Assembly (NCBI RefSeq): GCF_001614315.2
Contig: NZ_LVEG02000001.1
Coordinates: 1 to 64,000, forward strand
DNA length: 64,000 nucleotides
Reading direction: 5' to 3'
Source: Halofilum ochraceum
GTDB lineage: Bacteria; Pseudomonadota; Gammaproteobacteria; XJ16; Halofilaceae
The position numbers were made by a program, and so were the translations under genes. Below the pieces are notes generated by a model. That model searched no databases, was not told the DNA's origin, and saw only the letters and a program-made list of their open reading frames with translations. Position 1 is the stretch's first letter, and every line of letters begins with the position of its first letter. Shown here one piece after another: positions 1 through 45,041 of this stretch.

Positions 1-435
1 CGGGGCTACGGCATCCTGATCCGCCCGATCCGCGGTGTTGCCGCCGGTCGCGGTGTCGGATCGTGCGGGTTCACCGGGCGTGACGCCGTGCGCCTTTGGT
101 TCCCCTTCGCCGTCCACGCGCACGAACACCAACCGATCGACTCGGGTGATCGACTGCCGGGTGCGGCGATTGCGGACTTCGCACTCGATCGTGATCGACG
201 TCCGTCCGAACTCCACGACCCCCGTGCCGATCTCGACGATATCGCCCTGGCGCGCGCCGGCCAGAAAGTGCACGTCCGAGATACTGCGCGTGACCACCGA
301 AGTGGACTCGAGCTGACAGGCGGCGTAGATGAATGCTTCCTCATCGATCCATGCCAGCACGCGGCCGCCAAACAGGGCGCCGTTCGAGTTGAGGTCTTTC
401 GCGGCGACCATCTTCCGGGTCCGGTATTTCATCAT
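1..435 (-). CDS. Acyl-CoA thioesterase, hotdog fold, 3' end outside window
   Basis: The minus-strand frame is open from an ATGATG start at 435 to the window edge (145 codons), so the C-terminus is missing. Residues about 10-35 contain DLNSNGALFGGRVLAWIDEE, the signature of cytosolic acyl-CoA thioesterases of the YciA/BFIT class, with the N-x-x-G-x-(L/I)-F-G-G loop and the helix carrying the catalytic acidic residue. The protein should hydrolyse acyl-CoA to free acid and CoA. A GAGGAA ribosome-binding site precedes the start. The last visible residues (from about 115) are polar and low complexity, unlike the core domain, so the product is longer than a minimal YciA. Substrate chain length cannot be told from sequence. 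Confidence 0.85.
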   Translation of the reverse strand, partial: MMKYRTRKMVAAKDLNSNGALFGGRVLAWIDEEAFIYAACQLESTSVVTRSISDVHFLAGARQGDIVEIGTGVVEFGRTSITIECEVRNRRTRQSITRVDRLVFVRVDGEGEPKAHGVTPGEPARSDTATGGNTADRADQDAVAP

Positions 436-3393: not shown

Positions 3394-3503
3394 GGTGGTA
3401 CTCCCGGGTCGAGGCCATTCATGGACGGCGCCCGATGGGCGCGGCGTGCACACAGTCCCGTATCCTGCGAGGGGATGCCGGCGATGTACAGAGCGGTCTT
3501 GAC

Positions 3504-3908
3504 TCAACGCCCGCCGATGGTGAGCAGGGTGTCGTCGTCGCGCATGAGGAAGAGGGCGATACAGGCGCCCAGCATCGGGATCGCGGCAAAAAACAGGAGG
3601 TTGTCAAACGGATCGAGGTACTGCCGCCACGAAGACAGGGTCGAGATGCCGTGGGCGATCAGCACATAACCGTAGGTCCAGAGGCGCCAGAGGCCGAGCA
3701 CGAAGGCGATCTCGACCGCCAGCTGTACGAGTCCGATTGCCAGCAGCAGGCCGGCGCCGATATCGGGAAAACCGTAGAAATTGCCGAACACCGCGGCCGC
3801 GTGGCCGGGCATCAGGAGTTTGTCCAGCGACCACATCGCCATGACCATGAAGACGGTGATCCGCAGCAGGAGAAGGCTGATTCGCAGGCGTCCGGAATCA
3901 CTGTGCAT
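3504..3908 (-). CDS. DoxX-like four-helix membrane protein
   Basis: Translation probably starts at ATG 3908, with GAGAGG upstream, giving 134 residues. Four hydrophobic helices at about 10-27, 41-61, 66-86 and 102-122 and the LRITVFMVMAMWSLDKL start resemble the DoxX/DUF6790-type integral membrane family. The function of this family is unsettled; members often accompany redox or thiol genes. It lies between RidA and GST genes but is divergent from the GST, so it is not in its operon. Confidence 0.6.
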   Translation of the reverse strand: MHSDSGRLRISLLLLRITVFMVMAMWSLDKLLMPGHAAAVFGNFYGFPDIGAGLLLAIGLVQLAVEIAFVLGLWRLWTYGYVLIAHGISTLSSWRQYLDPFDNLLFFAAIPMLGACIALFLMRDDDTLLTIGGR

Positions 3909-26402: not shown

Positions 26403-26467
26403 GTAGGTCGGGCTTACAGCCCGACAAGAGTAAGCCACTGATCTGTCGAGCTGTAAGCCCGACCTAC
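26403..26467. repeat. Dispersed palindromic repeat, family A
   Basis: Perfect 18-bp outer arms GTAGGTCGGGCTTACAGC (26403-26420) and its complement (26450-26467) flank a 29-bp centre. Each end can also fold into its own small hairpin (GTCGGGCT..AGCCCGAC). A second copy with the same plan lies at 37178-37240. It is located between the LysR gene stop and the lipoprotein promoter. Confidence 0.8.
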
Positions 26468-43286: not shown

Positions 43287-43335
43287 AGCGTGCGTCGGCT
43301 ATCGTGCAATATGGTTCGGGCGCGATGCCGTAATC

Positions 43336-43369
43336 CGTTGGGTATCGCTGGCGCTCGATCCAACCTAAG
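43336..43369. repeat. Dispersed repeat, family B, left unit beside the insertion sequence
   Basis: GTTGGGTATCGCTGGCGCTC followed by GATCCAACCTAAG is an imperfect palindrome like the first unit at 32731. The interrupted second unit resumes at the left flank of the IS (ending CGTAG at 43406) and continues after it. Confidence 0.7.
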
Positions 43370-43493
43370 GCATGCAAACCGATCAATCGGATCCGCACGA
43401 TCGTAGATCCTATGGGTGGGTCTCAAGGAAGGGCCGCAGTCAAGGCTATCCTGTGGTTGAGAGTCCAACAGCGACCACGAAGGAGGTTCCGGG

Positions 43494-44636
43494 ATGACTG
43501 CGACCCTTCGCGATCAGGCTACGACGGCGACTGAGGTGATGTACATGGCCCTGGAGTTGTCGGGGTCGAAGTGGCGGGCGGCGTTCGCCACGCCGGGAGA
43601 CGAGCGCACGCCGCAGTGGTCGATCGCCGCGGGCGATCTGGCGGCGCTGGCGCGCACGGTCGAGCGGGCGAAGGCGAAGCTCGGGGGTGCGGCGGGCACT
43701 GTGGTACGCAGTGTGTACGAGGCCGGCCGCGACGGTTTCTGGCTGCACCGCTGGCTCCAGGCGCAGGGCGTGGACAACCGGGTTATCGACGCCGGCAGCA
43801 TCGAGGTGAACACCGCGCGCAAGCGGCGCAAGACCGATCGTCTGGATGCGCGGCTGTTGCTGCGCAAGCTGATCGCGTTCTGGGGCGGTGATCGGCGCGT
43901 GTTCTCGGTCGTCGAGGTGCCGCCACAGGAGGTCGAGGCGGTGCGCCGCCTCGAGCGTGAGCGCGAGCGCCTGGTCGGCGAGAGTACGGGGCACACCAAC
44001 CGCATTCGCTCGCTGCTGGCGCTGGAGGGCCACGCCCGGGTGGCCGTCGACCGCCACCTGCGCGAGCGCCTCGCCGAACTGCGGCGCTGGGATGGCACGG
44101 CGCTGCCGCGCTGCCTGATCGAGGAGATCGAGCGCGAGTTCGCGCGCCTGGAGCAGGTGCGCGAGCAGCGCCGCAGCGTCGAGGCCGAGCAGCAGCGCCT
44201 GGTCGAGGCGGGCGACGAGGAGGTGATGCAGGTCGTGCGCACGCTCGAGCGGGTGAAGGGCGTGGGCCCGGGCAGCGCCTGGATCCTGTCGCTGGAGATG
44301 CTCGGCTGGCGCCGCTTTGCCAACCGCAAGCAGGTCGCGGCACTGGCGGGACTGGCGCCGACGCCGCATGCCAGCGGCTCAAGCGAGCGCGAGCAGGGCA
44401 TCGACAAGCACGGCAATCGCCGGGTGCGCGCGGTGATGGTCGAACTCGCCTGGCGCTGGCTGCGCTGGCAGCCCCACAGCGAACTCAGTCAGTGGTTCCG
44501 GCGCCGCTATGGCGGCGCGAGCCGGCGCCAGCGCCGCATCGGCATCGTGGCGCTCGCGCGGCGGCTTCTGGTGGCGCTTTGGCGCTATGTCGCGCGCGGT
44601 GAGCTCGACCCCGATGTGGTACTCAGCGCTGGCTGA
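43494..44636 (+). CDS. IS110 family transposase
   Basis: AAGGAGG precedes ATG 43494. The 380-residue protein has an N-terminal RuvC-like domain with candidate acidic residues Glu21 (ALELSGSKW), Glu76 (VYEAGRDG), Asp115 and Asp118 (KTDRLDAR), so the first of the usual D-E-D-D is Glu. A long basic helical middle (about 145-240) follows. The C-terminal Transposase_20 domain has LERVKGVGP, RKQVAALAGLAPTPHASGSS and GIDKHGNRRVRAVMVELAW, including the catalytic-type serine. It is full length and looks intact, so the element may be active. Confidence 0.92.
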   Translation: MTATLRDQATTATEVMYMALELSGSKWRAAFATPGDERTPQWSIAAGDLAALARTVERAKAKLGGAAGTVVRSVYEAGRDGFWLHRWLQAQGVDNRVIDAGSIEVNTARKRRKTDRLDARLLLRKLIAFWGGDRRVFSVVEVPPQEVEAVRRLERERERLVGESTGHTNRIRSLLALEGHARVAVDRHLRERLAELRRWDGTALPRCLIEEIEREFARLEQVREQRRSVEAEQQRLVEAGDEEVMQVVRTLERVKGVGPGSAWILSLEMLGWRRFANRKQVAALAGLAPTPHASGSSEREQGIDKHGNRRVRAVMVELAWRWLRWQPHSELSQWFRRRYGGASRRQRRIGIVALARRLLVALWRYVARGELDPDVVLSAG

Positions 44637-45013
44637 GCACGGCGCGAGCGCGCACGAGCCGGACAGCGACAACCGGGTCGATGTGAGCCGGATGGGCTGA
44701 TCCGCCGGGCCAGCGCGACGGGCAACGAGGTTGGGCCGCGCCCGTAACCCAGCCCGGTCGACGATCCTCGACCGACCCCTGTAGATGGGGCGCGGCCATC
44801 ATCCCGGTGAACCGACGGCGCATGCGGCATTGGGTGATCGGCGAGCACGCCGACACGGATAGAAGGTCGTCGCGGGTCCAAAAGACCCCACGCGAGATCA
44901 CCGGGACCTCGAGGCTGTAACGCCGCGCCTGGACAGGTGGATCGCGCATGCGGCCAGCGGAGGCGCTGATGTAAACAAAGCCACGATGGCCTTGACACAA
45001 CACGCCTCATAGA
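44637..45013 (+). ncRNA. Candidate bridge RNA region in the IS right end
   Basis: IS110-family elements encode a bridge RNA in their longer non-coding end. Here 44734-44743 (GGCCGCGCCC) pairs with 44788-44797. Inside is a second stem GGTCGA/TCGACC (44756-44761 and 44768-44773), giving an internal loop of the sort that displays guide sequences. The loop strands hold AACCCA (complementary to target TGGGTT right of the insertion) and GTAGAT (identical to the left junction). Just 5' lies AGGTTGGG (44728-44735), identical to the target from the core onward. Exact RNA ends are not predictable by eye. Confidence 0.45.
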
Positions 45014-45041
45014 AGGTTGGGTTGACGAAGGAAACCCAACG
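45014..45041. repeat. Family B repeat, right part interrupted by the IS
   Basis: AGGTTGGGTTGACGAAGG followed by AAACCCAACG continues the unit whose first bases (CGT, before the AG core) lie left of the IS at 43402-43406. It matches the complement of 2466-2493 base for base. Confidence 0.8.

What the first reader, a model, noticed from the sequence alone, without database searches (positions are those of the whole stretch)
44637..45013. Candidate bridge RNA with guide-like matches to target and donor
The long right non-coding end folds into nested stems (44734-44743/44788-44797; 44756-44761/44768-44773). Loop strands contain AACCCA and GTAGAT and a neighbouring AGGTTGGG. These match the insertion site in the repeat on the right side and the left junction. 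Such matches are what a programmable IS110-type guide RNA would show. Matches of 6-8 nt could arise by chance, so this is a lead and not proof.
Basis: inference. Interest (0 to 1): 0.62.

Follow-up and report, generated by a model that had tools for sequence, protein, structure and literature searches.

The report
Guide RNA steering a jumping gene
Next to a bacterial jumping gene lies a stretch that almost certainly encodes a folded RNA whose two loops read the insertion site and the element's own ends, so the element lands in one particular kind of small genomic repeat; the principle is already known, and this is a clear new example in a little-studied branch.

Summary
Window 43405-45013 is a 1609-bp IS110-family insertion sequence; its recombinase gene is 43494-44636. 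It sits in a REP-like genomic repeat. A 154-nt RNA (44722-44875) is conserved just downstream of the recombinase in 87 of 92 related loci. A model built without the window finds it at E 1.6e-25. The loop strand AACCCAGCC (44746-44754) is complementary to the right half of the target (8 Watson-Crick pairs plus one G-T in 9). GTAG (44781-44784) equals the left half. Across 55 distinct right guides, each fits its own target (mean 7.45 of 9) far better than other targets (3.89); 0 of 100,000 permutations reach this. A second loop covaries with the element's own ends. RNA position and guide order are IS1111-like, but the subterminal inverted repeats that define IS1111 are not met, so it is filed under the wider IS110 family. 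New member of a known kind. Transcription and activity are untested. Side finding: the clade carries Glu instead of Asp at the first catalytic position.

The parts
43405..45013 (+). whole insertion sequence, 1609 bp, counting the left AG core dinucleotide as part of the element
   Evidence: right boundary from repeat copies starting at 45014; uninterrupted repeat CGTAGGTTGGG; single copy in the genome
43494..44636 (+). recombinase/transposase gene, 380 aa
   Evidence: PF02371 3e-19 and PF01548 2.1e-9, both over cut-off; AlphaFold model closest to IS621 (Z 22.0) and ISCro4 (Z 21.6) recombinases
44722..44875 (+). bridge (seek) RNA, limits of the covariance model; true transcript ends unknown
   Evidence: leave-window-out model R2, 97.1 bits, E 1.6e-25, only hit in the window
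44734..44743 (+). stem 1, 5' arm
   Evidence: compensatory changes in relatives
44788..44797 (+). stem 1, 3' arm
44746..44754 (+). right-target guide AACCCAGCC: pairs with top strand 45015-45023 (GGTTGGGTT), 8 Watson-Crick pairs plus G44752-T45017 wobble
44756..44761 (+). stem 2 (inner hairpin), 5' arm
44768..44773 (+). stem 2, 3' arm
44781..44786 (+). left-target guide GTAG(AT): identical to left target 43403-43406, so it would pair with the bottom strand; AGAT is constant in most of the family, GT is the variable part that matches here
44827..44830 (+). left-donor guide GCAT: complementary to left-end ATxC at 43407-43410; one mismatch in this element (C44828 against C43409)
   Evidence: covariation in relatives; the window is the only C/C pair of 78
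44834..44841 (+). stem 4, 5' arm (GTG, one unpaired A, TCGG), closing the small hairpin beside the donor guides
44850..44856 (+). stem 4, 3' arm (CCGACAC)
44857..44865 (+). right-donor guide GGATAGAAG: matches the right end CATAGA|AG (45008-45015)
   Evidence: A/A in 70 and G/G in 3 of 73 elements examined, no mixed case
44992..44997 (+). TTGACA, -35 half of the promoter expected at the circle junction
   Evidence: at least 5 of 6 letters in 57 of 69 elements with both ends found
43406..43411 (+). GATCCT, -10 half of the junction promoter, 17 nt from the -35 after circle formation
43403..43406 (+). left part of the interrupted repeat (GTAG)
45014..45040 (+). right part of the interrupted REP-like repeat (AGGTTGGGTTGACGAAGGAAACCCAAC)

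Best explanation
44722-44875 encodes a bridge (seek) RNA of an IS110-family element with IS1111-like layout. Shown by sequence: it has a target loop and a donor region, and their bases follow the target and the element's own ends across relatives. Inferred from work on IS621 and ISEc11: the recombinase binds this RNA; the element leaves as a circle whose joined ends form a promoter; the target loop pairs with the two strands of the REP-like repeat GTAG|GTTGGGTT (5' strand with the right top strand, 3' strand with the left bottom strand); the donor guides pair with the joined ends CATAGA-AG-ATCC; and recombination takes place at the shared AG core.
For: RNA found just downstream of the recombinase in 87 of 92 loci searched with a recombinase match placed; window found by a model that excluded it, E 1.6e-25. 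14 of 20 pairs show compensatory change. Right guide against own target: 55 distinct guides, mean 7.45 Watson-Crick of 9 against 3.89 for crossed pairs, 0 of 100,000 permutations; with one per distinct target (48) 7.38 against 3.83, again 0 of 100,000. Left guide: the base next to AG identical in 58 of 61, the next in 51 of 61, permuted 0.56 and 0.26. Donor guide: variable base of the left end complementary in 72 of 78, permuted 0.40, 0 of 5,000; right-end A/G variant mirrored in 73 of 73. Natural reprogramming: L050 and L071 scaffolds 93% identical, guides and targets both changed, 9 of 9 each with own target, 5 when crossed. Guide order equals that published for IS1111 (PMC11187229).
Against: Folding energy of the RNA core is no better than shuffles (z -0.75). 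The window's own fit is not perfect: one G-T wobble in the right guide, only two left-guide bases match beyond the constant AGAT, and the window is the only C/C mismatch of 78 at the donor position. 11 of 55 own right-guide scores are under 7, some probably from a wrongly assigned right end. No transcript or activity data. Single copy, and no orthologous empty site was found.
Confidence: 0.94

Rival explanations
1. The RNA is a genuine bridge RNA, but this copy is no longer (or poorly) mobile: its guides have drifted from its own end and target, which would fit its single copy.
For: C/C mismatch at the donor position, the only one of 78; G-T wobble in the right guide, whereas L098's near-identical guide fits a target GGCTGGGTT 9 of 9; one copy in the genome although 25 other repeat places exist.
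Against: Recombinase open reading frame intact with the catalytic-position residues and S294 present. rG-dT pairing is tolerated at IS621 target position 4 (PMC11208160). The close relatives L057-L060 have the same wobble and occur at four places in one genome.
Confidence: 0.3
2. The conserved stem-loop acts only as DNA or mRNA structure (terminator, end binding, control of the recombinase mRNA), and the loop-target matches are incidental.
For: GC-rich stems; core folding z-score -0.75 means the fold itself is unremarkable.
Against: Loop bases follow each element's own target and ends; 0 of 100,000 and 0 of 5,000 permutations reach the observed fit. A plain structural role predicts no such link.
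Confidence: 0.03
3. Chance matches of 6-8 nt in a GC-rich end.
For: True for one of the three matches: AGGTTGGG at 44728 has no counterpart in relatives.
Against: The other two matches sit at fixed places in a conserved RNA and covary with the target in 55 and 61 distinct cases.
Confidence: 0.01

Closest known systems
IS1111-group seekRNA elements (ISEc11, ISKpn4, ISPa11; Siddiquee et al. 2024, PMC11187229)
   Same: Guide RNA downstream of the recombinase; stretch complementary to the top strand lies 5' of the stretch matching the other strand; 7-bp left and 3-bp right extensions fit; ISPa11 also targets REP sequences.
   Different: No clear 11-13 bp subterminal inverted repeats (window 3 of 9); recombinase 380 aa rather than 330-350; Glu in place of the first Asp; recombinase tree does not join it to IS4321, although the tree is poorly resolved.
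IS621 bridge RNA system (IS110 group; Durrant et al. 2024 PMC11208160, and the structure paper PMC11208158)
   Same: Two guide regions, one for target and one for donor; dinucleotide core; REP target; recombinase fold (Z 22.0 over 307 residues); rG-dT wobble tolerated.
   Different: The IS110-group RNA is encoded upstream with the guides in the opposite order; here it is downstream.
ISRel9 (Rhizobium etli p42a)
   Same: Nearest named element met: 39.8% identity over residues 16-335, also has Glu at the first catalytic position.
   Different: The covariance model found no match in its locus, so its RNA, if any, is too diverged for this model.

Membership tests
IS110 family in the wide sense (IS110 + IS1111) | RuvC-like N-terminal domain PF01548 plus C-terminal PF02371 with SG motif | tested here: met
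   Both over cut-off; S294 in 40 of 40 and G295 in 39 of 40
IS110 family in the wide sense (IS110 + IS1111) | DEDD catalytic tetrad | tested here: inconclusive
   E76, D115, D118 in 40 of 40; the first residue is Glu (E21) in 39 of 40 and Asp in 1; carboxylate kept, activity unknown
IS110 family in the wide sense (IS110 + IS1111) | recombinase fold of IS621 | tested here: met
   Z 22.0, rmsd 3.8, 307 residues aligned to 8wt6_D
IS110 family in the wide sense (IS110 + IS1111) | circular intermediate with junction promoter | not testable with these tools
   Only predicted: TTGACA, 17 nt, GATCCT across the joined ends; -35 conserved in 57 of 69
bridge / seek RNA | conserved structured non-coding RNA in the longer end | tested here: met
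bridge / seek RNA | loop bases that follow both halves of the target | tested here: met
bridge / seek RNA | guides for the element's own ends (donor) | tested here: met
   in the window itself one of the four left-donor positions is mismatched
bridge / seek RNA | RNA transcribed and bound by the recombinase | not testable with these tools
   needs small-RNA sequencing of purified recombinase
IS1111 group | 11-13 bp perfect or near-perfect subterminal inverted repeats | tested here: not met
   Window 3 of 9 beyond the ATG anchor; clade mean 3.19 against 2.77 crossed, 69 elements; 10 of 69 reach 6 or more, L056 8 of 9
IS1111 group | non-coding region downstream, top-strand complement first | tested here: met
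IS1111 group | recombinase groups with IS1111 references | tested here: inconclusive
   17-row tree with long branches
IS110 group (narrow) | guide RNA upstream of the recombinase, bottom-strand match first | tested here: not met
   RNA lies downstream and the order is reversed
REP target | many dispersed copies of a GTAG-headed hairpin | tested here: met
   25 places besides the window's own in the genome with at most 3 mismatches, 0 for the reversed control pattern
REP target | REP family linked to a RAYT (Y1) transposase gene | tested here: inconclusive
   4 Y1_Tnp genes; two have GTAG-headed hairpins nearby, but of other REP families

The most novel reading that the evidence does not exclude
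This element belongs to a distinct, widespread branch of bridge-RNA recombinases: about 370-390 aa, RNA encoded downstream with IS1111 guide order, no clear subterminal inverted repeats, and Glu instead of Asp at the first metal-binding position. Its RNA has an explicit donor region that covaries with the element's ends. Such a branch would break the published link of guide order and RNA position with subterminal repeats, and offer a recombinase with an altered active site.
Probability: 0.35. Interest if true: 0.5.

Novelty: new member of a known kind. Interest (0 to 1): 0.36.

Why it matters
It turns a by-eye lead into a well-supported guide RNA and gives a ready family for work on programmable recombinases: 55 distinct right guides with their targets, donor bases that covary with the ends, and natural reprogramming pairs. 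It also shows that downstream RNA and IS1111 guide order occur without clear subterminal inverted repeats, and points to an active-site change (Asp to Glu) worth testing.

Tried and rejected
AGGTTGGG (44728-44735) as a guide: rejected; relatives show no link to their target there. Rfam: no family over threshold; snoZ168 at E 0.82 is far below its gathering score and is taken as chance. Single-protein scan of viral contigs: no relative; with the alignment three distant ones, L137-L139, of which L137 and L138 gave no RNA match. Order-level genome search: only 3 genomes, no relative besides the own genome; class: 1 other of 369. Covariance model on IS4321, ISEc45, ISRel9 and ISSgr1 loci: no match up to E 10. 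Recombinase tree to place it with IS1111 or IS110: long branches, not resolved. Folding energy as evidence: not decisive. Orthologous empty site in the two same-genus genomes: left-flank gene found in one (85% identity, G002), right-flank gene in neither, so no clean empty site. A GGCTGGG version of the repeat that would fit the guide perfectly: no exact GTAGGCTGGGTTGAC in the genome, one copy with one other difference.

Rows dropped before counts: of 93 model matches, 6 were set aside (2 minus-strand, 4 not just downstream of the matched recombinase), leaving 87. 13 of the 87 had no usable right end, leaving 74, reduced to 55 distinct right guides. For the left guide 77 of 78 records with a left end were used, reduced to 61 distinct combinations. 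L139, a partial recombinase match, was searched but is not in the 92. The five of 92 without an RNA match are L103, L105, L119, L137 and L138 (compared by hand); two of these (L119, L138) end shortly after the recombinase match.

Full report
What is there. The window holds one insertion sequence, 43405-45013. Its recombinase (43494-44636, 380 aa) matches PF02371 and PF01548 over their cut-offs, and its AlphaFold model (mean pLDDT 86.6) is closest to the IS621 and ISCro4 bridge-RNA recombinases (Z 22.0 and 21.6). It is the only element of its kind in the genome. The right end is fixed by a repeat that begins at 45014 and recurs elsewhere. With at most 3 mismatches the genome has 26 places including the window's own, and none for the reversed control pattern. 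Uninterrupted copies read CGTAGGTTGGGTTGACGAAGGAAACCCAAC; in the window the left junction reads CGTAG|ATCC and the right junction ATAGA|AGGTTGGG, so AG is shared. Some copies are followed about 100 nt on by an inverted second hairpin. This is a REP/BIME-type target (the name rests on the GTAG head and hairpin; recalled, not tested further).

The RNA. Nine relatives (L048-L056) show the same stem-loop just downstream of the recombinase while their targets differ. A scan of genome contigs gave 80 more loci at 41-53% identity, from Pseudomonadota, Acidobacteriota, Chloroflexota, Planctomycetota, Gemmatimonadota and others. In an alignment of 25 RNAs, 14 of 20 consensus pairs have at least one sequence with both sides changed and the pair kept. 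The model found the RNA immediately downstream of the recombinase in 87 of 92 loci. A model built without the window finds the window RNA at 44722-44875 with 97.1 bits, E 1.6e-25, and nothing else in 64 kb. The folding energy of this core is unremarkable (z -0.75), although the whole right end is more stable than shuffles (z -4.39).

Target guides. In the first loop the 5' strand is complementary to the right half of the target, top strand, and the 3' strand equals the left half. For the window: AACCCAGCC (44746-44754) pairs with 45015-45023 by 8 Watson-Crick pairs and one G-T, and GTAG (44781-44784) equals 43403-43406. Taking 55 distinct right guides (from 74 elements with a right end), own targets score 7.45 of 9 on average, other targets 3.89; 44 of 55 own scores are 7 or more against 102 of 2970 crossed; no permutation of 100,000 reached the observed mean. 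Own scores of 8 or more: 31 of 55 against 27 of 2970 crossed. With one element per distinct target (48) the result is the same. The left guide matches at the base next to AG in 58 of 61 and the next in 51 of 61 (permuted 0.56 and 0.26), and more weakly at positions 3 to 5. In the window only these first two match. Pairs such as L050 and L071 (RNA scaffolds 93% identical, guides and targets both different, 9 of 9 with own target and 5 crossed) are natural reprogramming.

Donor guides. Left ends read AGA[T/A]xC; the RNA segment before stem 4 is complementary: x in 72 of 78 (permuted 0.40, 0 of 5,000) and T/A in 74 of 78 (permuted 0.78, 0 of 5,000). The RNA segment GGATAGAAG mirrors the right end: A/A in 70 and G/G in 3, no mixed case. 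The window is the only C/C mismatch at x. Durrant et al. reported possible donor-binding bases in a multi-loop in IS1111 RNAs (PMC11208160, passages).

How it works. Shown here: conserved RNA, target loop and donor region that follow target and ends. Inferred by analogy with ISEc11 (PMC11187229, parts 1-4 of 9 read, plus passages) and IS621 (PMC11208158, passages): RNA bound by the recombinase, circle formation, serine-mediated strand exchange at the AG core. Support for the circle: TTGACA in the right end (57 of 69 with at least 5 of 6 letters) would stand 17 nt from GATCCT/GATACT of the left end once joined.

Membership. RNA position, guide order and the 7/3-bp extensions are those of IS1111. 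Its defining subterminal inverted repeats are not met: 3 of 9 in the window, and 3.19 against 2.77 crossed in 69 elements. A 17-row recombinase tree with named references is too poorly resolved to decide. I therefore file it in the IS110 family in the wide sense and not in the IS1111 group. Siddiquee et al. mention IS110-family elements with a downstream non-coding region; whether those are this clade I could not test.

Novelty. RNA-guided IS110/IS1111 insertion, REP targets (IS621, ISPa11) and natural reprogramming are all in print (PMC11187229, PMC11208160). This is a new member. The clade's Glu at the first catalytic position (E21, 39 of 40), where IS621 has Asp 11 whose mutation abolishes recombination, is the least expected point. 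The E21-D11 match rests on the alignment with named references and on aligned ranges 15..375 and 5..321, not on a printed residue pair. One literature search for IS110 with EEDD found nothing in the held library.

Noticed in passing
43554-43556 (codon of residue 21 of the recombinase); clade alignment A5: First RuvC catalytic residue is Glu instead of Asp in 39 of 40 clade members (Asp in L127), while IS4321, ISEc45, ISSgr1, ISLin1 and ISShdy1 have Asp and ISRel9 has Glu.
   Followed up: partly
43335-43371: A second, inverted REP-type hairpin lies just left of the element; at a number of other copies it follows the target repeat by about 100 nt as a BIME-like pair, so here the order is reversed.
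   Followed up: partly
26403-26467 and around 37240: Paired GTAGGTCGGGCTT... hairpins, a different REP family; the same kind lies beside a Y1 transposase (RAYT-like) gene in locus L140.
   Followed up: no
G001 and G002 (same genus): The target repeat has 6 places in G002 and none in G001, so it differs sharply in number within one genus.
   Followed up: no
L098 (Candidatus Thiosymbion), RNA at 3401-3555: Its right guide is almost identical to the window's, but its target has GGCTGGGTT, which fits 9 of 9 without the wobble; the same genome carries L057-L060 at four other places of a related repeat.
   Followed up: partly
L085 1471-1618 and L067 4581-4728: Extra RNA matches far from the matched recombinase gene; possibly further or partial element copies nearby.
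   Followed up: no
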